Virus record (IMG/VR): IMGVR_UViG_3300049846_002574
Coordinates: 1-32,542 of that record
Source: a virus
Length of the DNA: 32,542 nt
Direction: 5' to 3' (one strand)
Under the pieces are notes generated by a model. The model saw only the letters and a program-made list of their open reading frames with translations. It was not told where the DNA came from and did no database searches. This document shows, piece after piece, positions 4,693 through 29,995 of this stretch (its first letter is position 1; every line of letters begins with the position of its first letter). The translations under genes were made by a program, and so were the position numbers.

Positions 4693-5247
4693 TCAGTTAT
4701 TCCGGCCGCTCGGGCCGAACGTCCTGTAGTACCGCGTCATCGCCCACCCCTGTGGACCTGCCTGGACCGCGTCCGCGTTGGTCCTGTGCCGCACCAGGTC
4801 AAACCACACGGCCCGGGCCCGCTCGACAACCTCAGGCGGAAACGTCTTCGGCGGGCGGCCCGACTGATCCCGAGATCGAGGCGCCCGACCGGCATGCGTC
4901 AACGCCTCGATCGCGTCGGCGATCATATCATCCCGCTCGGCTTTGGTGGCTGTCGATCGCCCGCTGTCCACCTCGATTATGTGGGCCCCCCTGGCCTCGA
5001 TCGCGCGGATTGCCGCCCACAGCGCGAGCCGCGGACGGTCGGCTGTGCGCAGCTTGGGCGGCGCCAAAACGTGGAGCCGGACGACGGCGACGGCCTCGCC
5101 GCGCCGGAGAGAGCGGATCAGCGCGTCGAGCGTCTCCGGCCCATCGCCCTCGACGTAGACGCGCTCGCGCGGCACGCCGTGCTCGGCGAGGCCGGCGATC
5201 TGGCCGGCCGCCGAGAAGCGGCTGAGGGGGCGGACGTAGCCGTGCAT
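4693..5247 (-). CDS. Resolvase-like protein (serine recombinase fold, catalysis doubtful)
   Basis: From the ATG at 5247 (GGAG 8 nt upstream) the protein has 184 residues; a GTG at 5256 is an alternative start. The first 75 residues follow the pattern of a serine-recombinase catalytic domain: GYVRPLSRF in the place of YARVS, an Asp/Gly/Glu stretch, LDALIRSLRRGEAVAVVRLHVLA in the place of the GD-vvV-RLDRL segment. The usual Arg after the DRL motif is missing, so activity is doubtful. The C-terminus (SGRPPKTFPPEVVERARAVW, later RYYRTFGPSGR) resembles a DNA-binding helix-turn-helix tail. It is the last gene of the early-left operon. A nine-codon ORF with its own GAGGAG site (5253-5282, minus) overlaps the ribosome site and could couple translation. 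Confidence 0.6.
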   Translation of the reverse strand: MHGYVRPLSRFSAAGQIAGLAEHGVPRERVYVEGDGPETLDALIRSLRRGEAVAVVRLHVLAPPKLRTADRPRLALWAAIRAIEARGAHIIEVDSGRSTATKAERDDMIADAIEALTHAGRAPRSRDQSGRPPKTFPPEVVERARAVWFDLVRHRTNADAVQAGPQGWAMTRYYRTFGPSGRNN

Positions 5248-5357
5248 GTTGGTCACTCCGGTTCCATCGCCAGCCGCCGCATGTCGGCTCCTCTATGGGC
5301 GGACGTATCCCTAATGCGGGCTGTCGATTTCATTTTATCATAATGCCCGAATGCCTA

Positions 5358-5437: not shown

Positions 5438-5704
5438 ATGGCAACCCACCCCCACCGCAACACTCGCAATGCCGAGGACAAGTACGCGACGGTGCTCGTG
5501 CAAGCGAGCGGTCGCAGGTACCATGCCGATGGATGGAGCAGCAGGGCGGAGCCCCTGTTTCGCGTTTGGGTTGAGGCAGCCTCCTACGCCGATATGCTGC
5601 GGCAGGCCGAGGGGTTTCGGCGCACAGCCGGGCCCGGATGCCTCCGCCACGGGGACGAGGAGGTCGAGAGCGTAGTCGTGCTCAATCAGCGCCGCGTCGT
5701 CTAA
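5438..5704 (+). CDS. Small unknown protein with its own promoter, moron candidate
   Basis: An 88-residue basic protein beginning at the ATG at 5438, preceded by GGCGGAGACAGGC as ribosome site; an upstream in-frame ATG at 5351 lies before the predicted transcription start and is rejected. The sequence contains a compact alpha/beta region (KYATVLVQASGRRYHADGW, then LFRVWVEAASYADMLRQAEGF) but no family I recognise. It is the only plus-strand gene inside the minus-strand early-left operon and is served by a near-consensus promoter at 5358-5386. Its end overlaps the end of the methyltransferase gene by 4 bases. This is the classical layout of a moron expressed from the prophage, so a host-benefit or superinfection-related role is possible; function is unknown. 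Confidence 0.7.
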   Translation: MATHPHRNTRNAEDKYATVLVQASGRRYHADGWSSRAEPLFRVWVEAASYADMLRQAEGFRRTAGPGCLRHGDEEVESVVVLNQRRVV

Positions 5705-6138
5705 ACCGCCGAACAACAAGGGTGCTCCGACTCAGCGAATCTACGTTTGAGGGCGAGTAACCGGTCAGCTCCGCGAGTGCGCAGCCGAGGTGAGTTCTCA
5801 AATCCGATCCAACGAGCGCCGGTCTCCCGTGCAAGTCGGATGGCGTCGAGATAGTAGCGGGAGCTGGCGCCGTCGATACCGGCTCCGCGAGTGTTGGCGG
5901 AGCTGATGTCGGTGCAGGGCGGGGAGGCGAGGAGGAGATCGATAGCCCCGCGGCGCGCGGTGAGTCTCGCGCCGTCGAGACTAGCGACGTCGTGGTAGAG
6001 GATGGCATCGGGCCAGCGCTCCAGGTAACGCGCACGCTTCCAGTCGTCCCACTCGCACGCCCACGCGACGTCGACGCCATTGTGATGGCAGGCGATCTCC
6101 CACCCGCCGATGCCGGCAAAAAGGACGGCGGCGCGCAT
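5701..6138 (-). CDS. C5 cytosine DNA methyltransferase, truncated
   Basis: Residues 1-13 (MRAAVLFAGIGGWE) are motif I, the S-adenosylmethionine-binding loop; residues 71-77 (ASPPCTD) carry the catalytic Cys75 of motif IV; residues 113-116 (FENS) are motif VI. The SPPCTDISSANTRG wording is typical of phage-type C5 methyltransferases. At 145 residues the protein lacks the target-recognition domain and motifs VIII-X, which normally add 100-200 residues. The C-terminus turns into basic sequence (ALKRRFAESEHPCCSAV) and runs into the plus-strand gene, suggesting that the 3' end was lost by recombination when that gene was inserted. Likely inactive alone. The start abuts the stop of the upstream gene. 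Confidence 0.8.
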   Translation of the reverse strand: MRAAVLFAGIGGWEIACHHNGVDVAWACEWDDWKRARYLERWPDAILYHDVASLDGARLTARRGAIDLLLASPPCTDISSANTRGAGIDGASSRYYLDAIRLARETGARWIGFENSPRLRTRGADRLLALKRRFAESEHPCCSAV

Positions 6139-6410: not shown

Positions 6411-7034
6411 TTATGTCGCCAAGGCGGCGTCGCTCATTTTGTCGAACGCGGACCTAGACCGCAGTGCGGCACACACGGCGGCGCGCACCTCTTGGCCCGT
6501 CATATACGCCTCGCAGGCATCGCGCAATTTGGAGTGCGTAACCCCCTTGCCGGCGACGTAGCACCTATGGCGCGTCGCGACTGCAATCAGTTCTTCCCGC
6601 CACAGCATGTCCAGCATCTGAAACGCCCAGGGCTGCCACTTCGCATAGGCCGGATCCGTCACGGTGACAGTGCCGGCCCCTGCATCCACTGTCCACGTCT
6701 CACAGTGTCCAATGTCACGCAGAATCGTTTGCGTCTCGGACATCATCGGCAGCCGCTCGTTCCACTTCGGGGCCAGCGCCGCAATCACCTTTGCGCAGAC
6801 CGGTTTGAACGCAGTCAATTGCGCCGCGAGTCGAGCCACAACATCTCGGCTCGACTTAATCTCAACGCCGATTATTTCGGCCTCCGTCACTGCCGCAATG
6901 TCGATCCTATTCGATGAATAACGGAGTGGTAACTCGTGGATAATGCGAGCAGTGGGATATGAGGCACGAAGGCGCGGCACAATCAGCTCGCGCATTGCTA
7001 GTTCTTCATCGCTACGACCCGCCCGCTTCGTCAC
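6411..7034 (-). CDS. PD-(D/E)XK nuclease-like protein
   Basis: A 207-residue protein started at GTG 7034, which has AGGGAGG five bases upstream; longer readings would overlap another small gene. Residues 30-62 contain a textbook restriction-endonuclease-like core: Glu34 in HELPL, Asp45 in RIDIAAV and Glu58-X-Lys60 in GVEIKSS, as in sce7726/MmcB-type nucleases. The remainder is helical with a tryptophan-rich region (KWQPWAFQMLDMLWREELI) followed by a basic segment. Such proteins in phages act in DNA processing or recombination or degrade DNA; the substrate here is unknown. It lies in the early-left operon after three tiny overlapping ORFs, with only 11 nt between their stop and its start. Confidence 0.75.
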   Translation of the reverse strand: MTKRAGRSDEELAMRELIVPRLRASYPTARIIHELPLRYSSNRIDIAAVTEAEIIGVEIKSSRDVVARLAAQLTAFKPVCAKVIAALAPKWNERLPMMSETQTILRDIGHCETWTVDAGAGTVTVTDPAYAKWQPWAFQMLDMLWREELIAVATRHRCYVAGKGVTHSKLRDACEAYMTGQEVRAAVCAALRSRSAFDKMSDAALAT

Positions 7035-7045
7035 ACTCGCCTCCC

Positions 7046-7159
7046 TCAATGAACGTCGTCGCGGGCGCCGCGCTCGCCCCGCTCCAGCGCCTTGAGCCTC
7101 GCCGCGCATCGATCGGCTTGCGCTCTGAGCTTGCGCAATGGTGATTGTGATGTGCTCAT
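7046..7159 (-). CDS. Very small coupled ORF (37 residues)
   Basis: ATG at 7159 overlaps the upstream stop (ATGA), and the stop at 7046-7048 overlaps the ribosome site of the nuclease gene. The product is a short basic helix (SPLRKLRAQADRCAARLKALE, then a charged tail). No family recognised. The tight fit on both sides, rather than the sequence, supports it as a real gene. Confidence 0.45.
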   Translation of the reverse strand: MSTSQSPLRKLRAQADRCAARLKALERGERGARDDVH

Positions 7160-7344
7160 GATCGATGCCTTCTACGGCCGGCGCGCGGGTAGGCGGCGCT
7201 GGCGTCCCTGTCCTGCCACACCCCGCCGCGGCCCCGCTCGGGGCCGGACGTGGCAATGCCGTAGTGGATCGCGAGACGGTCGAGCGCGGCCTGCAGCGTG
7301 CGTCCCACCTTGTGGCGGGCGCCGAAGCGGCCGAGGATCGTCAT
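7156..7344 (-). CDS. Small unknown early protein
   Basis: A 62-residue basic protein starting at the ATG at 7344 within an ATGA overlap with the stop of the tiny ORF before it. It contains a short helix (GRTLQAALDRLAIHYGI) and a Gly/Arg-rich end. A longer in-frame reading from 7473 would overlap the upstream gene by 46 bases and is less likely. No function can be given. Confidence 0.5.
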   Translation of the reverse strand: MTILGRFGARHKVGRTLQAALDRLAIHYGIATSGPERGRGGVWQDRDASAAYPRAGRRRHRS

Positions 7345-7427: not shown

Positions 7428-7886
7428 TCATGACGAAGCCTCGCCGGTGATGCGGCCAGTCGCCTTCGGCCACACCTTCAGGCGGCCGAAGTGCGTTGCG
7501 CCAGCGATGACCATGGCGGCAACCTTGGCTTCTGCGGGATCGTCGCTGCCACAGCGCCGCTCGAGGTCGGCGATCGCAGCGTCAAATTCCGGGGTGCCGC
7601 GATAGGCGACGGTATAGTGAGGGCCCGGATCAACCGGATCCGGTTGTGGCCGGGGACGACGCACTGCGGCGATGGCGTTCGCGGCGCGATAGCACTCGCC
7701 CGGAGTCGGCCAAGCGCGGTAGACCTGATCGCGGATCACGCGGTCGGCGGTATCGGCGAGGATCGTGTCCGTGAAACCCTTGAGGACTTGCCGATACTCG
7801 GCGGCGAAGGCCGTGGGGTCGTCGGTTTTGGGTTCCCCATAGAGGCCCGCGAACCGGGTCAGCATGCGATCGATCTCGTCCATCAC
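7428..7886 (-). CDS. Unknown early protein, possible replication accessory
   Basis: A 152-residue protein (151 if the ATG at 7883 is used instead of the GTG at 7886); GGAGG lies 5-8 nt upstream within the end of the preceding gene. The N-terminal 60 residues are helical (RMLTRFAGLYGEPKTDDPTA, then a helix with FTDTILADTADRVI), followed by AWPTPGECYRAANAI, a wording also found in small phage helicase-loader-like proteins, then a Pro-rich hinge and a C-terminal helix. No firm family. It lies two genes downstream of the DUF1376 replication protein, so a loader-type role is a reasonable but unproven inference. Confidence 0.6.
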   Translation of the reverse strand: MMDEIDRMLTRFAGLYGEPKTDDPTAFAAEYRQVLKGFTDTILADTADRVIRDQVYRAWPTPGECYRAANAIAAVRRPRPQPDPVDPGPHYTVAYRGTPEFDAAIADLERRCGSDDPAEAKVAAMVIAGATHFGRLKVWPKATGRITGEASS

Positions 7887-8156
7887 TCAGTCCTCCGGCA
7901 GCTTAATCCGTTGCGGATTGAAGATGGCGCGGATGACCATCATCCAGCCGAGCTGCATCTGCGTGCGGCCAACCGCGGCCAACCGCTTGCGCTCGCCGAT
8001 CTTGACCGTGTCCGGGTCGGTCTCAGCGTACTTTTCGACCCGCTCGATGTAGCGGAGCATCCGCTCCTCTAACTGCTTGCCCTCGTTGGCGAGGTCGATG
8101 TTGGCCTGGCTCTGCGCCGTGTAGCCAGCCACTGGCATGGGTGCGTGGGTGGTCAT
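7887..8156 (-). CDS. acb2: Acb2-like cyclic-oligonucleotide sponge (anti-CBASS candidate)
   Basis: An 89-residue helical protein. The order GY-x4-S-x3-IDL-x-N-x2-K-x-LEER-x-LR, a central acidic helix, then VGRTQMQLGWM, a basic helix RAIF and the ending PQRIKLPED matches the Acb2/Tad1 hairpin family as I know it from tailed phages (GR-T-x-E/Q-x-GFM-x2-NRA-x-F-x-P-x-R). Tyr12 and Lys27 have the same 15-residue spacing as Tyr11 and Lys26, reported as ligand-binding in Pseudomonas phage Acb2. Acb2 proteins form hexamers that soak up cyclic di- and trinucleotides and thus silence CBASS and related defences. Early expression next to the replication genes fits a counter-defence role. The assignment is by eye; activity is inferred. 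Confidence 0.75.
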   Translation of the reverse strand: MTTHAPMPVAGYTAQSQANIDLANEGKQLEERMLRYIERVEKYAETDPDTVKIGERKRLAAVGRTQMQLGWMMVIRAIFNPQRIKLPED

Positions 8157-8157
8157 T

Positions 8158-9009
8158 TCAATTCCTCCTCTCGATCACTTCGCGGATTGTTGGTTTGCGG
8201 CTCGCGCCTGCGGCGGCCTCTGGCAGCCCGCGCAAGCGTCGGTCGCGGGCCTCGGCGATTGCCTTCGAGAAATACTCCCAGCTGCCGATCGGGGTGCGGC
8301 GCGGCTTGCGCGCGACGGCGCGGATCGTGGTCAGCACGTCGCGGTCGAGGTCGCAGCCCGACTCGAGCCACATGATCGGGACCCCGAGGTGCAGCAGGCC
8401 GGGGGCGCCCGCCGGGTTGGCGAGCGCCGTGCCAGCCGCAGCAAACAGTTGGCCCTCGAGCGCCTGCCATCGCTCTCGATCGAGCGGCGCAGCAGCATTG
8501 GGTTGACTCCGCTGCTGCTGACTAAAAACGGTAATAGTATTCTCTTCTTTTGGTGCAGGTGAAGGTGAAGTGTTTTGTAACCCCTTGATCCCGCTCATTG
8601 TTGTATGTGGGATCGCAGGCAACTTCGGGGCAACTTCGTCCTGACTTCGAGCCGACTTCGCGCCGACTTCAGGGGCGACATCATGTGGGATGTCGGGGCG
8701 ATCTGGCGGCGATTTGCGCTTCTGCCGGCGGGCGGCCACGGACTCGATCTCGACGAGCGCGCGCTCATTGACCAGCGTCCCGTCCGCGGCAATCCGGATC
8801 ACGCCGGCCTGCAGGAGGATCGCCTTGAGGCGGCGGAAGCGCCTTACGTCATACCCAAACATCCGCGCGCTGTCGGCATCGTCATCGGGGAGGCCGGCCT
8901 CGCGGGAGTGCATCTTGAGCAGCATGCGGAAGTAGAGCCGCTCGGCATCGTGCGGGAGACCCTCGACGGCCTCGCAATAGTCCGCAATGGAGATGGCGGC
9001 GATCTTCAT
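8158..9009 (-). CDS. DUF1376 (YdaU-like) phage replication protein
   Basis: A 283-residue protein. Residues 1-90 (ISIADYCEAVEGLPHDAERL with LYFRMLLKMHSREAGLPDDD following, then RRFRRLKAILLQAGVIRI) match the DUF1376 N-terminal domain of phage replication initiators. A charged, probably disordered linker (90-175) has Arg/Lys-Ser-rich text. The C-terminal part (LDRDVLTTIRAVARKPRRTP, then GSWEYFSKAIAEARDRR) matches the usual end of these proteins. The ATG at 9009 overlaps the GcrA stop (ATGA). A much longer open frame continues upstream to 9705 but lies across GcrA in another frame and is rejected. Its role is probably origin recognition or helicase recruitment. Confidence 0.78.
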   Translation of the reverse strand: MKIAAISIADYCEAVEGLPHDAERLYFRMLLKMHSREAGLPDDDADSARMFGYDVRRFRRLKAILLQAGVIRIAADGTLVNERALVEIESVAARRQKRKSPPDRPDIPHDVAPEVGAKSARSQDEVAPKLPAIPHTTMSGIKGLQNTSPSPAPKEENTITVFSQQQRSQPNAAAPLDRERWQALEGQLFAAAGTALANPAGAPGLLHLGVPIMWLESGCDLDRDVLTTIRAVARKPRRTPIGSWEYFSKAIAEARDRRLRGLPEAAAGASRKPTIREVIERRN

Positions 9010-9509
9010 GTCACGGGCTCCAGCGTTTGGTTGCGGAGGGCCTCGGCGACGGCCAGCGGAGGCAGGGCGTAGCAGCGTCGGGCGTGTGCGGCGCAGTAGG
9101 AGATCCCCGGGACTCGCTGGCCGCCACAGAAGCCAAAGCCGGGCGTTGCCGGCTTGCCGATGGGATAGCGGCAGTGGTGATCCTCCAGATCGATGACGCT
9201 CATGATGGTGGCCGGGATGGCGCGATCGGCCGCGTCGAGCTGGCGGCGGAGCGCGTCGAAGTCCGCGCGCGCCCGGGCGCGCTGCTCCCGTGTCGCCGTC
9301 CGGCGCTTGTGCTCTGCTACCAGAGGCGACGGCCTCGGCGGCTTGCGACGGCTCGTGGTGTGGCGGGCAAGCCCGAGGCGGTGGACCTTGCCGATCACGG
9401 CGGATCGGCTGACCACGCCATCCAGCCGGGCGCTGATCACGCTCGCCGAGTAGCCCTCGCGCCACAGCGCGATCAGGACGTCGACGCGCTCCTCTGTCCA
9501 CACGCTCAT
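9006..9509 (-). CDS. gcrA: GcrA-family cell-cycle regulator, phage copy
   Basis: A 167-residue protein. Residues 4-47 (WTEERVDVLIALWREGYSAS, then SRSAVIGKVHRLGL) are the GcrA DNA-binding region, almost word for word as in alphaproteobacterial GcrA. The C-terminus keeps CRYPIG (Cys113), FCG (Cys128) and YCAAH (Cys139, His142), the conserved Cys-rich end that contacts sigma-70 RNA polymerase in cellular GcrA. Cellular GcrA activates promoters carrying CcrM-methylated GANTC sites and controls cell division genes. A phage copy could redirect host transcription or read host methylation. It lies after a 259-base non-coding stretch in the early-left operon and overlaps the replication gene by 4 bases. 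Confidence 0.88.
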   Translation of the reverse strand: MSVWTEERVDVLIALWREGYSASVISARLDGVVSRSAVIGKVHRLGLARHTTSRRKPPRPSPLVAEHKRRTATREQRARARADFDALRRQLDAADRAIPATIMSVIDLEDHHCRYPIGKPATPGFGFCGGQRVPGISYCAAHARRCYALPPLAVAEALRNQTLEPVT

Positions 9510-9632
9510 GCTGCCCCCATGTGACACATGTTGGATTGATCCCAGCGGAGCCGGTTCGGCCGCTGGGGGCGGGACGCACACTTGTGATTTGTGAGGACGG
9601 CGGGCGACAGGCCCGGTCTCGACCTCCGCTCC

Positions 9633-9748
9633 AGGCGATGGCACGTGCGATGCGAATCAGTGGCGGGAGTCGCTTTGGAGGGAGGTACCCGCCGACACGT
9701 GCCATCGCCTCGAGGGGAGTGAAGAAGTCCCGCCAGCACCCCTCGAGG
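9633..9748. repeat. Nested inverted repeats between cro-like gene and gcrA
   Basis: The 259-base gap 9510-9768 has no convincing gene on either strand. It carries a perfect 15-bp inverted repeat (AGGCGATGGCACGTG at 9633-9647 and its complement at 9696-9710) and, partly overlapping, a 10-bp inverted repeat (9708-9717 with 9739-9748). On the minus strand this would be transcribed just after the Cro-like gene, where lambdoid phages keep antitermination or terminator signals. Nature unknown. Confidence 0.5.
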
Positions 9749-9768: not shown

Positions 9769-10011
9769 CTAGGCGACCTGATCCTCCGCGGGCCTCTTAC
9801 GGGCGGACCGCCGAGACGATCGCGTGCGGTAATTCTCCATGAAGGCGCGGATTTTGTCTGACGTCCGGAGGGTCACCTGTTTGCCGAGCCGTAGATCGCG
9901 CACGAGGTGACCGTCATTGGCACACTCAAGCCCAAAGACTGTCGGCGTCATGGAGTGGCGCTCCATGAACTTCTCGACTTCCTGAAGGAGGAGATCAGCC
10001 GAAGAGATCAT
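9769..10011 (-). CDS. Cro-like helix-turn-helix protein
   Basis: An 80-residue protein from the ATG at 10011. Text such as FMERHSMTPTVFGLECANDG, then HLVRDLRLGKQVTLRTSDKI and RAFMENYR is a small helix-turn-helix domain of the sort found in Cro-like phage proteins of Alphaproteobacteria, followed by a basic tail (RSSRRSARKRPAEDQ). It is the first gene of the early-left operon and is divergent from the repressor at 10101. The ATG lies only about 11-15 bases downstream of the predicted -10 region and has no ribosome site, so its mRNA may be nearly leaderless. Probably a repressor antagonist in the lysis-lysogeny switch. Confidence 0.7.
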   Translation of the reverse strand: MISSADLLLQEVEKFMERHSMTPTVFGLECANDGHLVRDLRLGKQVTLRTSDKIRAFMENYRTRSSRRSARKRPAEDQVA

Positions 10012-10100: not shown

Positions 10101-10703
10101 ATGAGCCCGACATGGCGCGACCGGCTGCAGAGGGCGATGCTCGCCCGCAACTTCAACATGAAGGAGTTGTCGCTCGCGTCTGGCCTTGGCGAGACGGCCG
10201 TCCGGGATGCCTTGAAACGCCGCAGTGCGCCGAGCGTCGCGACGCTCGGCCCAATCGCAAAGGCTCTCGGGATGTCCCTTGATGAGTTGCTCGAGGGGGA
10301 CGCCACACCGGTCCTCTCAATTCCGATCCTAGGCGCAGTGTCAGCGGGAGAGGGTTGGGTCTCATTCAATGACGCAAACGCAAGAGCGCTGCCTCGGCTT
10401 GAGGCGAAGATTGACGGCAACGCGGTTGCTCTAGAGGTCCGATCCGACTCGATGGCGCCGGCGTACCGCAACGGGGATTACATCATCGGATCGAAGCGCG
10501 CGGGCGCTTCTGCGGACAACTTGATAGGTCTCGACTGCATCATATTGACAGACAAAGGAGAACGCTATGTGAAGTATCTTGCTGGTGGAACTGCGCGGGG
10601 TCGATTCAACCTGCGATCGTACAACCCCTCCCACAAAGATGTGGAAAACGTCAAGCTCGTGTGGGTGGCACCGATTCTGTGGGTTCGTCGCTCCCAGAAG
10701 TAG
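10101..10703 (+). CDS. LexA/CI-type phage repressor (first copy)
   Basis: A 200-residue repressor. Residues 6-66 are an XRE-type helix-turn-helix (MKELSLASGLGETAVRDALK). Residues 70-200 are an S24 peptidase domain: likely autocleavage bond Ala82-Gly83, catalytic Ser117 (SDSMAP) and Lys158 (YVKYL). The start at 10101 is chosen because the frame upstream runs over the operator. It is divergent from the Cro-like gene and is followed after 15 bases by a membrane-protein gene. It is related to the second repressor at 11043-11642: Ser117 and Lys158 lie at identical positions and both end in RSYNP, then APxLWVRRS. RecA-stimulated self-cleavage and SOS induction are expected from the family. Confidence 0.85.
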   Translation: MSPTWRDRLQRAMLARNFNMKELSLASGLGETAVRDALKRRSAPSVATLGPIAKALGMSLDELLEGDATPVLSIPILGAVSAGEGWVSFNDANARALPRLEAKIDGNAVALEVRSDSMAPAYRNGDYIIGSKRAGASADNLIGLDCIILTDKGERYVKYLAGGTARGRFNLRSYNPSHKDVENVKLVWVAPILWVRRSQK

Positions 10704-10718
10704 CCAGAGGCGATTGAA

Positions 10719-11051
10719 ATGGTCAGTCGGCACGATCGGATTGCGCGCGGCTTCCTGCGCATCGCATGCTCGCTCAGCGTACCGGTTGCCCTGCTGGCAG
10801 CGGTTAGCTTCGCACTCATAAGCTCAGCGCCAGCGCCTCGGTTGAGCCCGAGCGTCAACGATGTCCACGAGCACGAGTCGCCCAGCCCCTTCGATGACAT
10901 CGAGAGAAGAAACCGCCGACGGATGGCCGAAGCAAAGGATTACTCCGCGCCGCTGATGATGGCCGGCTTCGCAGCTTTCTGGTTCGTGTTCTGGTGGACA
11001 ATCGGGTGGATTGTCAGAGGGTTCGTCGCTGATAGCGCACACTCAGAATGA
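10719..11051 (+). CDS. Small two-span membrane protein downstream of the repressor
   Basis: A 110-residue protein with two transmembrane helices (about residues 12-35, FLRIACSLSVPVALLAAVSF, and 80-102, MMAGFAAFWFVFWWTIGWIV) separated by a charged loop (DDIERRNRRRMAEAKD). The start ATG has GAGGCG 6 nt upstream. It would be co-transcribed with the first repressor and so made in the lysogen. Membrane proteins in this position often exclude superinfecting phages, which is an inference from location. Its 3' end overlaps the convergent second repressor by 9 bases. Confidence 0.65.
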   Translation: MVSRHDRIARGFLRIACSLSVPVALLAAVSFALISSAPAPRLSPSVNDVHEHESPSPFDDIERRNRRRMAEAKDYSAPLMMAGFAAFWFVFWWTIGWIVRGFVADSAHSE

Positions 11052-11642
11052 CCGCCGCACCCAGAGCACCGGAGCAGCCCACTCGAGCGCTACGTCGTCA
11101 ATGTCGGCATATAGCGGATTGTACGAGCGGAGGCGGAAGACCCCTTTTTTAGACCCGGGCCGCACAACTTTGAGATACCCGGCGCCTGCGGCCGTCTTCA
11201 CGAGGCAGTCCCGTCCAATCGCGTTCTGCATAGCGGAGCCGCGCAGCTGCACACCGATAATGACATCTCCATCTCGATAGGCCGGAGCCATAGAGTCGCC
11301 CCGAACACGCAGGGCGATCTGCCTCTCCTCTCCCAGGCTGAGTCGCACGTGGTCTGGATGTGTGCCCGGCGGGGAGTAATCGGTCGGCACAAACTCTTCT
11401 CCGGCGCTGATCTCCCCGACAATCGGGATCAGCCGCGGCGCTTCATTGCTGTGGAAAAACTCGCTGACTGACATGCCGGCTAGCGCCGCAATGGATTCCT
11501 GGAGTACCCGCTTGACCGGAGCGCCCGACTCCCAGCGACTGACTGTCGCCTGCTCGACCCGGAAGCGCTCGGCGAACTCGCTCTGGGACTCCCCCAGCGC
11601 GAGTCTGAGTTGGCGGACCTTGTTCCCCACGATCCGTGACAT
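11043..11642 (-). CDS. LexA/CI-type phage repressor (second copy)
   Basis: A 199-residue repressor from the ATG at 11642 (a GTG at 11651 is possible). Residues 8-62 form an XRE helix-turn-helix (LGESQSEFAERFRVEQATVS); residues 70-199 an S24 peptidase domain with likely cleavage bond Ala80-Gly81, Ser117 (GDSMAP) and Lys158 (YLKVV). The C-terminal domain is clearly homologous to that of the first repressor, while the DNA-binding domains differ more. It faces the early-right operon divergently, and its upstream region holds paired repeats (11658-11688) and two operator copies (11749-11794). Two cleavable repressors in one phage suggest either a two-step switch or capture of a second immunity gene. 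Confidence 0.85.
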   Translation of the reverse strand: MSRIVGNKVRQLRLALGESQSEFAERFRVEQATVSRWESGAPVKRVLQESIAALAGMSVSEFFHSNEAPRLIPIVGEISAGEEFVPTDYSPPGTHPDHVRLSLGEERQIALRVRGDSMAPAYRDGDVIIGVQLRGSAMQNAIGRDCLVKTAAGAGYLKVVRPGSKKGVFRLRSYNPLYADIDDVALEWAAPVLWVRRSF

Positions 11643-11657
11643 GGGCCGCACCTATCA

Positions 11658-27627: not shown

Positions 27628-27869
27628 GCGGCGCGAAGCGGGGAACGAGCTGCATTCTCTGCGGCGGAACGAGGCGTATCAGCGTCGCGGCCACCGGTCG
27701 CACCGTGCGGGACGCACAGGGTCGCGAGCGGGTGCCGAGGGCCAAAGCCCGCAGCATTCCCTGCCTGGCCTGCTCCAGAGGTCGGGTCGCGAAGGACTAT
27801 GAGACGAGGCTCGAGGGCCTTGAGGGAGACGACATGCTCGACAAGATCAAGCGGTTCTACGGGTTCTGA
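27624..27869 (+). CDS. Small four-Cys zinc-ribbon protein
   Basis: An 81-residue protein from the ATG at 27624. Two Cys pairs (CILC and CLAC, about 38 residues apart) make a likely zinc ribbon, with a basic middle (RTVRDAQGRERVPRAKARSI) and a charged helical end. It sits between the terminase and portal genes, overlapping both. A role in packaging is suggested only by location. Confidence 0.65.
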   Translation: MSGAKRGTSCILCGGTRRISVAATGRTVRDAQGRERVPRAKARSIPCLACSRGRVAKDYETRLEGLEGDDMLDKIKRFYGF

Positions 27870-29995
27870 TGACCGCCGACGTGCTGTCGTTTCCGCCAGC
27901 CGCGAGCCTGATGGCGGGTGTGGCGCGGGCACCGGCGACACCACTGCCGCCGACCACGACCGCCAGCGTCGATCCGGGGATCAGCCCCGCCGCCGATCCC
28001 GCGACCGGCGGCCTCGACGGTGACACGCTCTACAAGTTCTTCCTCAACTGGGAGACGGCCAAGAGCGGCGAGCGGGCCGACATGGCCAAGGCGTGGCGGT
28101 ACTATCATCACAAGCACTGGACGAGCGAGCAGCTCGCCGTGCTCGCCGCCCGCAACCAACTGCCGACGATCTGGAACAGGATCGCCAGGAAGATCAACTT
28201 TCTCGTCGGGACCCAGCAGCGCCTGCGGCGGGATCCCAAGGCCTATCCGCGGACGCCGATGCATGAGGCCGATGCCGACGTGGCATCGGCCGTGTTGCGG
28301 TACGTCCACGACACCACCCAATGGTCGGCGGAGGCATCGAATGCCACGTTGGACTTCTTCGTGGCCGGGATCGGCGTGTCCTACCTCGGTGCCGAGGGAG
28401 CCGACGTCGTCAAGCGCTGGGTTCCCTGCCATCAGTTCTTTTACGATCCGCGGTCGATCGACCCGATGTTCAAGGACGCCAAGTACCTCGGCGTCGTGAA
28501 GTGGGTTGACATCGACGCGGCGCGGAAGATCGTGAGTGCGATCGGCGGCGATGCCGAGGAGATCGACGGTCTGATCAACACCCAGCGCGACGGCCTCGTG
28601 ACGTGGGACCAGCGGCACCAATGGGTGCATCCCCACGAGCGCCGGGTGCGGCTGGTCGAGATGTGGTACCGCCACGACGATGCGTGGCGTTGCGCCTACC
28701 TGTGCGGCCCGGTCAAGCTCGGTGACGTGCCCGCGCCCTATGAGCGCGACGGCAAGACGGCGCACCCTTACAACGCCGTGTCCTGCCACATCGATGAGCA
28801 GGGCGACAGGTACGGGATCGTGGCCGGGATGATTCCGGTCCAGGACGAAATCAATTTCATTCACTCGAAGCTGACGTGGTCCCTTGCGGCCCGGCAGGTG
28901 TTCTTCGAGTCGGGTGCGTTCGGCGGCAAGGCCGCGGATATCGACAAGGTCCGCCGTGAGCTCATGAAGGCCAACGGTCTCATCGAGCTCGCGCCCGGGG
29001 CACTCAAGGACAAGAAGATCGATATCCAGCGCCACGACGCCGAGATCGCAGGCTGGACCTCGCTACTGCAGGGGGCGCTTGCCGAGATCGAGAACCTGGG
29101 CCCCAACCCAGGACTGATCGGCCGGGGCGAGGGCATCAACACCCAATCGGGCCGCGCCATCCTGGCGCAGCAGAATGCGGGCATGACCGAGCTGTCGCCC
29201 GCCTTCGAGCGCCTGCGCGAGTGGCAGCTCAGCGGCTACAAGATCGACTGGTCGCTGGTGCGGCAGTTCTGGACGCAGGAGAAGATCATTCGTGTCACCG
29301 ACGACGACCAGTCGTCCCGGTTCCTGAAGATCAACGAGGTCCGCATCGACCCGATGACGGGGGCGATTTCGCTCGCCAACCAGGTTGCTGCGATCGACGT
29401 CGACATCATCCTCGAGGAGGGGCCGGACACGGTCACGATGAAGGAGGAGATGCTTCAGACATTTGCGCAGCTCGGGCAGGCCGCGATCGGTCCGCTCGGC
29501 AAGGTGCTGATCGAGCTCTCGAACATGCCCAACAAGGCGAAGCTCTTGCAGCTGATGGATGAGGCCCAGGCACCGCCACCCGAGGTGGCGCAGATGACCG
29601 AGCGGATGGCAAAGCTGGAGGCCGCCCTCAAGGAGATGCAGGTTGCCAAGGCGGCGGCCGAGGTCGAGAACAAGCGAGCCGACACGCTTGCCAAGCTGGC
29701 GCCGATCATGATCCCGCCGCAGGTGCTGGCAAACGTGTTCCCAATCCCCTTCGCCGACACCGGCGGACCGCCAGAGGGTCCGCCGACGATCATGGGACCG
29801 GACGCTGCGATGATGGGCCCGCTCGGGCCGGGGATGCCGCCCATGCAGCAGGGCCCAGACCCGCGCTCGCTGCCGCCCGGCGGCCTCGCCGGCCCACCGG
29901 ATCCCCGCGTCATCGCTGAGCCCGTCGCGGGTGGTCCGGGTCAACTGCCGATGCCGCCGCCGGGCATCCTGCCGGCGCAGCCAGCGCTGAACTGA
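27869..29995 (+). CDS. Portal protein, P22-like
   Basis: A 708-residue portal. The first 250 residues read as in P22-type portals: FFLNWETAKSGERADMAKAW (and RYYHHKHWTSEQ), NRIARKINFLVGTQQRLRRD, then WVPCHQFFYDPRSIDP. Further conserved stretches include DEINFIHSKLTWSLAARQVF and INTQSGRAILAQQNAG. A helix-rich zone (about 575-610) precedes a Pro/Gly/Met-rich, probably disordered C-terminal tail of about 90 residues. Portals form the dodecameric DNA channel at one head vertex. It starts in a TGATG overlap with the zinc-ribbon gene. The size is close to the P22 portal (about 725). Confidence 0.9.
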   Translation: MTADVLSFPPAASLMAGVARAPATPLPPTTTASVDPGISPAADPATGGLDGDTLYKFFLNWETAKSGERADMAKAWRYYHHKHWTSEQLAVLAARNQLPTIWNRIARKINFLVGTQQRLRRDPKAYPRTPMHEADADVASAVLRYVHDTTQWSAEASNATLDFFVAGIGVSYLGAEGADVVKRWVPCHQFFYDPRSIDPMFKDAKYLGVVKWVDIDAARKIVSAIGGDAEEIDGLINTQRDGLVTWDQRHQWVHPHERRVRLVEMWYRHDDAWRCAYLCGPVKLGDVPAPYERDGKTAHPYNAVSCHIDEQGDRYGIVAGMIPVQDEINFIHSKLTWSLAARQVFFESGAFGGKAADIDKVRRELMKANGLIELAPGALKDKKIDIQRHDAEIAGWTSLLQGALAEIENLGPNPGLIGRGEGINTQSGRAILAQQNAGMTELSPAFERLREWQLSGYKIDWSLVRQFWTQEKIIRVTDDDQSSRFLKINEVRIDPMTGAISLANQVAAIDVDIILEEGPDTVTMKEEMLQTFAQLGQAAIGPLGKVLIELSNMPNKAKLLQLMDEAQAPPPEVAQMTERMAKLEAALKEMQVAKAAAEVENKRADTLAKLAPIMIPPQVLANVFPIPFADTGGPPEGPPTIMGPDAAMMGPLGPGMPPMQQGPDPRSLPPGGLAGPPDPRVIAEPVAGGPGQLPMPPPGILPAQPALN

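What the first reader, a model, noticed from the sequence alone, without database searches (positions are those of the whole stretch)
7887..8156. Acb2-like anti-CBASS sponge in an alphaproteobacterial phage early operon
Seen: an 89-residue helical protein whose motif order (GY...IDL-x-N-x2-K-x-LEER...GRT-x-Q-x-GWM...RAIF-x-PQRI-x-LPED) fits the Acb2/Tad1 hairpin family, with Tyr12 and Lys27 spaced as the reported ligand residues Tyr11 and Lys26 of Pseudomonas Acb2. Known: Acb2 hexamers sequester cyclic oligonucleotides and defeat CBASS. Inferred: this phage carries a counter-defence gene expressed with its replication genes. The central acidic helix (YAETDPDTVKIGERKR) appears longer than in the Pseudomonas form and may alter the ligand pocket.
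Basis: partly seen in the sequence, partly recalled or inferred. Interest (0 to 1): 0.8.

Follow-up and report, generated by a model that had tools for sequence, protein, structure and literature searches.

The report
Acb2-family immune-signal sponge gene
A temperate phage of an alphaproteobacterium carries a small protein of the known Acb2 family, which soaks up the chemical alarm signals bacteria use against phages; it is a well-supported but expected member of a family found here in hundreds of related phages and prophages.

Summary
The ORF is real: 89 aa on the MINUS strand (8156..7887), strong Shine-Dalgarno, codon-position GC of a gene. It belongs to the Acb2/Tad1 hairpin family: Pfam PF24729 E=1e-9, above the curated cut-off. 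A profile built only from its relatives hits solved Pseudomonas Acb2 (6e-12) and T4 Vs.4/Acb2 (6e-10), but Tad1 only at 0.14. The AlphaFold2 monomer (pLDDT 90.7) is a two-helix hairpin whose only convincing PDB matches are Acb2 and Vs.4. Y12, K27, T65 and F79 align with T4 Acb2 Y8, K23, T68 and F82; changes at Y8, T68 and F82 weaken binding in the literature. The Tad1 N-terminal domain is absent. One claim is wrong: the hairpin tip is 10 residues shorter than in Pseudomonas Acb2, though 9 longer than in most alphaproteobacterial relatives. The gene sits in a minus-strand early cluster with replication-type genes and GcrA, next to a CI-type repressor. Relatives are common in alphaproteobacterial phages (at least 247 IMG/VR loci, 44 genomes). 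Best reading: a cyclic-oligonucleotide sponge against CBASS. Ligand binding, hexamer formation and the host's CBASS were not shown. New member of a known kind.

The parts
7887..8156 (-). Acb2-family hairpin protein, 89 aa (helices 17-46 and 51-79; Y12, K27, R58, T65, R76, F79, P81, R83 conserved)
   Evidence: Pfam PF24729 1e-9; profile to PDB 8h2j 6e-12 and 7uq2 6e-10; AF2 plus Foldseek
8160..8176 (-). Shine-Dalgarno region (GAGAGGAGGAATT) just before the ATG of the hairpin gene; it overlaps the end of the DUF1376 gene
   Evidence: read from the sequence
8158..9009 (-). upstream gene: DUF1376 / primosomal-protein-like replication gene; its stop is 1-2 bases from the hairpin gene's ATG
   Evidence: Pfam DUF1376 6.6e-7 (30.0 bits, just under the 30.1 cut-off); phrog_9327 primosomal protein 5.6e-6
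7428..7886 (-). downstream gene, 152 aa, unknown; its start directly follows the hairpin gene's stop (TGAGTGATG), so probably translationally coupled
   Evidence: sequence; no credible family match
9006..9509 (-). phage-borne GcrA cell-cycle regulator; points to an alphaproteobacterial host (start chosen at the internal ATG)
   Evidence: Pfam GcrA 3.3e-35 on the ORF 9006-9644
9769..10011 (-). first gene of the leftward cluster, 80 aa, Cro-like by position and appearance only
   Evidence: position and sequence; no family match
10101..10703 (+). divergent CI-type repressor (HTH_3 + peptidase S24), indicating a temperate lambdoid-style switch
   Evidence: Pfam S24 1.5e-10, HTH_3 1.2e-6; phrog_4 transcriptional repressor 5.8e-26
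6411..7256 (-). further gene of the leftward cluster, phrog_984, function unknown; probable start lies inside this ORF
   Evidence: PHROG 7.7e-24
5701..6138 (-). C5 cytosine methyltransferase, N-terminal half only (145 aa)
   Evidence: Pfam DNA_methylase 7.2e-17, profile positions 4-118 of 324

Best explanation
The gene encodes a stand-alone Acb2-type sponge. Shown here: it has the Acb2/Tad1 hairpin sequence and fold, lacks the Tad1 N-terminal domain, and keeps the residues that in characterised Acb2 proteins hold the ligand. [quoted passage not shown] Made early in infection or on prophage induction together with the replication genes, it removes the signal produced by host CBASS (or related cyclic-nucleotide) systems before the effector is switched on. 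It sequesters; it does not cut.
For: Pfam hairpin above the gathering score, and all 72 aligned relatives match the same model. A relatives-only profile finds p26 Acb2 and T4 Vs.4 over nearly the whole protein. Foldseek ranks 1-8 are all Acb2/Vs.4 chains, probability 1.00, TM about 0.75; the next hits have E>=0.49. Y12 = T4 Y8, whose Y8A change disrupts binding (PMC12657218, PMC12657230); T65 = T4 T68, where T68M lowers affinity (PMC12657230); F79 = T4 F82, where F82C diminishes binding (PMC12657218); numbering. Conservation is not just an effect of how relatives were found: among 77 distinct relatives not caught by the N-terminal search pattern, Y12 is kept in 72 and K27 in 74 (the other three have R). 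Early-cluster context. CD-NTase (SMODS) genes pass the cut-off in 5 of 27 genomes that carry this family, against 7 of 289 Alphaproteobacteria drawn evenly (Fisher p 0.002).
Against: No binding or anti-CBASS data for any alphaproteobacterial member turned up in the held papers. Hexamer formation untested. The host and its CBASS are unknown. The window protein departs from its own relatives at near-invariant sites (I75 where 114 of 115 have N; A23 for V; G26 mostly N). Some relatives sit among head or tail genes rather than early genes (RcapMu, RcWaterboi, Vibrio H188).
Confidence: 0.72

Rival explanations
1. It is a Tad1-type sponge whose main target is the Thoeris signal gcADPR rather than CBASS nucleotides.
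For: The same Pfam hairpin family name covers both; the alphaproteobacterial clade has a conserved C-terminal tail beyond P81, and in Tad1 the C-terminal tail lines the ligand pocket (PMC12043709).
Against: No N-terminal beta domain: only 10 residues precede G11. Tad1 chains are found only at E about 0.14 over 26-27 profile positions, while Acb2 chains match over nearly the full length. No Tad1 chain among the 50 listed Foldseek hits.
Confidence: 0.08
2. A hairpin-family protein used for something other than immune-signal capture, for example a replication accessory or virion-associated oligomer, with the pocket binding an ordinary host nucleotide.
For: It is embedded between replication-type genes; relatives occur next to capsid and tail genes in other phages; the domain is fused to unrelated N-terminal segments in some phages, e.g. 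Caulobacter phage Jess A (188 aa) and L112, L079, L124.
Against: Among the residues kept across alphaproteobacterial, Pseudomonas and T4 proteins are the ligand-binding ones; variable genomic position is typical of accessory counter-defence genes.
Confidence: 0.15
3. A decayed copy: the fold is retained but the pocket no longer binds.
For: Departures at otherwise near-invariant sites I75, A23 and G26.
Against: Intact ORF with strong ribosome-binding site and strong third-position GC bias; Pseudomonas Acb2, which is active, also has I at the site matching I75; Y12, K27, T65, R76, F79 and P81 kept.
Confidence: 0.05

Closest known systems
Acb2 of Pseudomonas phages (p26/gp24; PDB 8h2j, 8h2x, 8ixz)
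   Same: Two-helix hairpin, N-terminal GY loop, residues matching Y11/K26, R67 and the end of helix 2
   Different: 34% identity; hairpin tip 10 residues shorter here; conserved C-terminal tail R-x-x-LPED absent from the Pseudomonas form; F79 where Pseudomonas has A
T4 Vs.4 / Acb2 (PDB 7uq2)
   Same: Hairpin fold, Y8/K23/T68/F82 equivalents present
   Different: 22% identity; tip 7 residues shorter; C-terminal tail not present in T4
Alphaproteobacterial phage hairpin proteins (Rhizobium RHph_Y2_11, Caulobacter Jess A, Brevundimonas Strzyga, Rhodobacter RcapMu; annotated hypothetical)
   Same: Clear homologues, about 35-53% identical, including the LPVxGY start and the P-x-R-[IV]-x-LPED tail
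   Different: Window protein has a 9-residue longer tip than most and I75 instead of N
Tad1 (PDB 7uav, 8kbe)
   Same: C-terminal hairpin classed in the same Pfam family
   Different: Tad1 has an N-terminal beta-sheet domain; absent here; sequence match not significant

Membership tests
Acb2 (Acb2/Tad1 hairpin, PF24729) | Significant match to the curated hairpin profile | tested here: met
   38.8 bits against cut-off 27, E=1e-9
Acb2 (Acb2/Tad1 hairpin, PF24729) | Sequence homology to experimentally characterised Acb2 over its length | tested here: met
   phmmer to p26 2e-4; relatives-only profile 6e-12 to p26, 6e-10 to T4 Vs.4
Acb2 (Acb2/Tad1 hairpin, PF24729) | Two long antiparallel helices with a short N-terminal segment | tested here: met
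   AF2 helices 17-46 and 51-79, pLDDT 90.7; Foldseek top 8 all Acb2/Vs.4
Acb2 (Acb2/Tad1 hairpin, PF24729) | Ligand residues Tyr (Pa Y11/T4 Y8) and Lys (Pa K26/T4 K23) | tested here: met
   Y12 and K27 in the alignments
Acb2 (Acb2/Tad1 hairpin, PF24729) | Homo-hexamer | not testable with these tools
   only monomer prediction offered
Acb2 (Acb2/Tad1 hairpin, PF24729) | Binds and releases cyclic oligonucleotides intact; defeats CBASS | not testable with these tools
   needs biochemistry and plaque assays
Tad1 | N-terminal antiparallel beta-sheet domain before the hairpin | tested here: not met
   no room: 10 residues before G11; no strand of 3 or more residues in the model
Tad1 | Sequence match to solved Tad1 | tested here: not met
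   best E 0.14 over 27 profile positions

The most novel reading that the evidence does not exclude
The alphaproteobacterial branch is a ligand-specificity variant of Acb2: its own conserved C-terminal tail (R83 in 114 of 115 distinct relatives, then x-x-LPED), absent from the Pseudomonas and T4 proteins, folds over the pocket, together with a tip of different length, so that it captures a different set of signals from the characterised sponges.
Probability: 0.2. Interest if true: 0.45.

Novelty: new member of a known kind. Interest (0 to 1): 0.3.

Why it matters
It adds an alphaproteobacterial temperate phage to the known carriers of Acb2-family sponges, and the comparison shows that a large, so far 'hypothetical' branch of this family (hundreds of loci, mostly from phages and prophages of Alphaproteobacteria such as Rhizobium, Rhodobacter, Caulobacter, Brevundimonas and Methylobacterium) keeps the binding residues and a tail of its own. 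If the branch is active, nucleotide-signal immunity is being countered widely in Alphaproteobacteria, where I found no report of an assayed member.

Tried and rejected
Single-sequence search of IMG/VR found no relative; an alignment query was needed. A profile including a near-identical copy of p26 gave E=6e-25 to p26; this is circular and was replaced by the relatives-only profile. TAL-effector hits have no stretch passing on its own and are repeat artefacts. NCBIfam gave only a chance LonB hit (E 0.08). N-terminal extensions in many relatives look like open upstream frames of GC-rich DNA with an internal ATG before the LPVxGY motif; only a few (Jess A, L112, L079, L124) look like real fusions. 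Host identification through the portal protein failed: it is only 34% identical to its best named match, with no IMG/VR relative found. Association with CBASS in host genomes is suggestive but confounded. Promoter and terminator scan of the divergent region was empty, which says little outside enterobacterial-type promoters. Key Acb2 papers (Huiting 2023; Cao 2024; Li 2024) are not held.

Full report
What is there. Window 8156..7887 on the minus strand encodes an 89-aa protein. The third codon positions are 88% GC against 40% at second positions, a GAGAGGAGG Shine-Dalgarno lies just upstream of the ATG, the stop of the preceding gene is one or two bases from the start, and the next gene's start follows the stop directly (TGAGTGATG). 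It is a normal gene of a compact leftward cluster.

What family. Pfam-A returns one family, Acb2_Tad1_hairpin, at E=1e-9, 38.8 bits against a curated cut-off of 27. PHROG 717 (unknown function) matches through its C-terminal part. Against solved structures a single-sequence search already finds p26, the Pseudomonas Acb2. To avoid circularity I built a profile only from the window protein and relatives recovered from IMG/VR and bacterial genomes (A3, 72 rows); it finds p26 at 6e-12, T4 Vs.4 at 6e-10, and Tad1 chains only at about 0.14 over part of the hairpin. All 72 rows match the same Pfam model.

Fold. AlphaFold2 with that alignment gives mean pLDDT 90.7 and two helices, 17-46 and 51-79. Against the PDB the eight best Foldseek matches are all Acb2 or Vs.4, probability 1.00, TM-score about 0.75; the ninth has E=0.49. 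In the viral library the best match is L7TP98, 126 aa, 38% identical, the same length as the Rhizobium phage RHEph10 homologue (that the two are the same protein is inferred from length and percent identity).

Pocket residues. Y12 and K27 align with Y11 and K26 of p26 and with Y8 and K23 of T4. T65 and F79 align with T68 and F82 of T4. Published changes at these sites weaken the sponge: Y8A disrupts cyclic dinucleotide binding and fails to activate Panoptes, and F82C shows diminished binding (PMC12657218); Y8A is a binding-deficient mutant and T68M lowers affinity (PMC12657230). In 115 distinct relatives the conserved positions include G11, Y12, Q15, N24, K27, E30, E31, R58, T65, M72, R76, F79, P81 and R83. 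Because the loci were found with two peptide patterns, I checked subsets not caught by each pattern: Y12 72/77, K27 74/77, and R76, P81, R83 13/13.

The 'central acidic helix' is the tip of the hairpin. From K27 to T65 there are 38 residues here, 48 in p26, 45 in T4 and 29 in most alphaproteobacterial relatives. So the tip is intermediate, not longer than in Pseudomonas. [quoted passage not shown] That is inference.

Surroundings. The record is a 32.5-kb virus contig with an integrase, Erf-type annealing protein, endolysin, large terminase, portal and major head protein: a temperate tailed phage. Leftward from the divergent CI-type repressor come a small Cro-like gene (by position only), GcrA (Pfam 3.3e-35), a DUF1376/primosomal-like gene, the hairpin gene, an unknown gene, a phrog_984 gene and the N-terminal half of a C5 methylase. 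GcrA and the relatives point to an alphaproteobacterial host; the exact host is unknown (best named portal relative 34% identical). Early expression is inferred from this layout; no sigma-70-like promoter was seen.

Relatives. 21 phage records, at least 247 IMG/VR loci, 44 genome loci, nearly all Alphaproteobacteria, and 39 plasmid records, mostly Klebsiella; the Pararhizobium one has the same peptidase/ParA neighbourhood as the large Rhizobium phages, so it is probably a phage-plasmid. Position varies: beside replication genes in Brevundimonas and Caulobacter phages, beside a peptidase and partition genes in large Rhizobium phages, and among head and tail genes in RcapMu, RcWaterboi and Vibrio H188. 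This scatter fits an accessory gene. RcapMu44 already carries the depositor's note 'similar to cyclic-nucleotide binding domain'.

Targets. CD-NTase genes (SMODS, over the Pfam cut-off) were found in 5 of 27 genomes carrying the family and in 7 of 289 class members (Fisher p 0.002, or 0.02 if only half the control group were comparable).

Verdict. Membership by sequence and fold is solid (my estimate about 0.97); the sponge function is inferred (0.72). It is a new member of a known kind; the alphaproteobacterial branch with its own tail is worth a binding assay.

Noticed in passing
window 10101-10703 (+) and 11043-11651 (-): Two different CI/LexA-type repressors (HTH + peptidase S24) lie a few hundred bases apart in the same phage, both best matching phrog_4; an unusual doubling of the switch.
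   Followed up: no
window 9006-9509 (-): Phage-encoded GcrA, the alphaproteobacterial cell-cycle regulator, in the early cluster; no similar protein in the INPHARED phage records by tblastn.
   Followed up: partly
window 5701-6138 (-): C5 cytosine methylase only 145 aa long, matching profile positions 4-118 of 324, with PCT where PCQ is usual; truncated or a short-form enzyme.
   Followed up: no
L004:4444-4983 and 5001-5249 (Rhizobium phage RHph_X2_26): A hairpin homologue lies directly downstream of a protein annotated as TIR domain-containing; possible functional pair around nucleotide signals.
   Followed up: no
L003:4728-5294 (Caulobacter phage Jess A), L112, L079, L124: Hairpin fused behind different small N-terminal segments, an architecture reminiscent of Tad1 but with apparently unrelated N-termini.
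   Followed up: partly
L005:5001-5291, L011:3001-3291, L010:2980-3204: Hairpin homologues placed between capsid and tail genes in Mu-like Rhodobacter phages and Vibrio phage H188, that is, late-gene context.
   Followed up: partly
window 27869-29995 (+): Portal protein only 34% identical to its best named relative, from Pseudanabaena phage Pam5; a little-sampled phage lineage.
   Followed up: no
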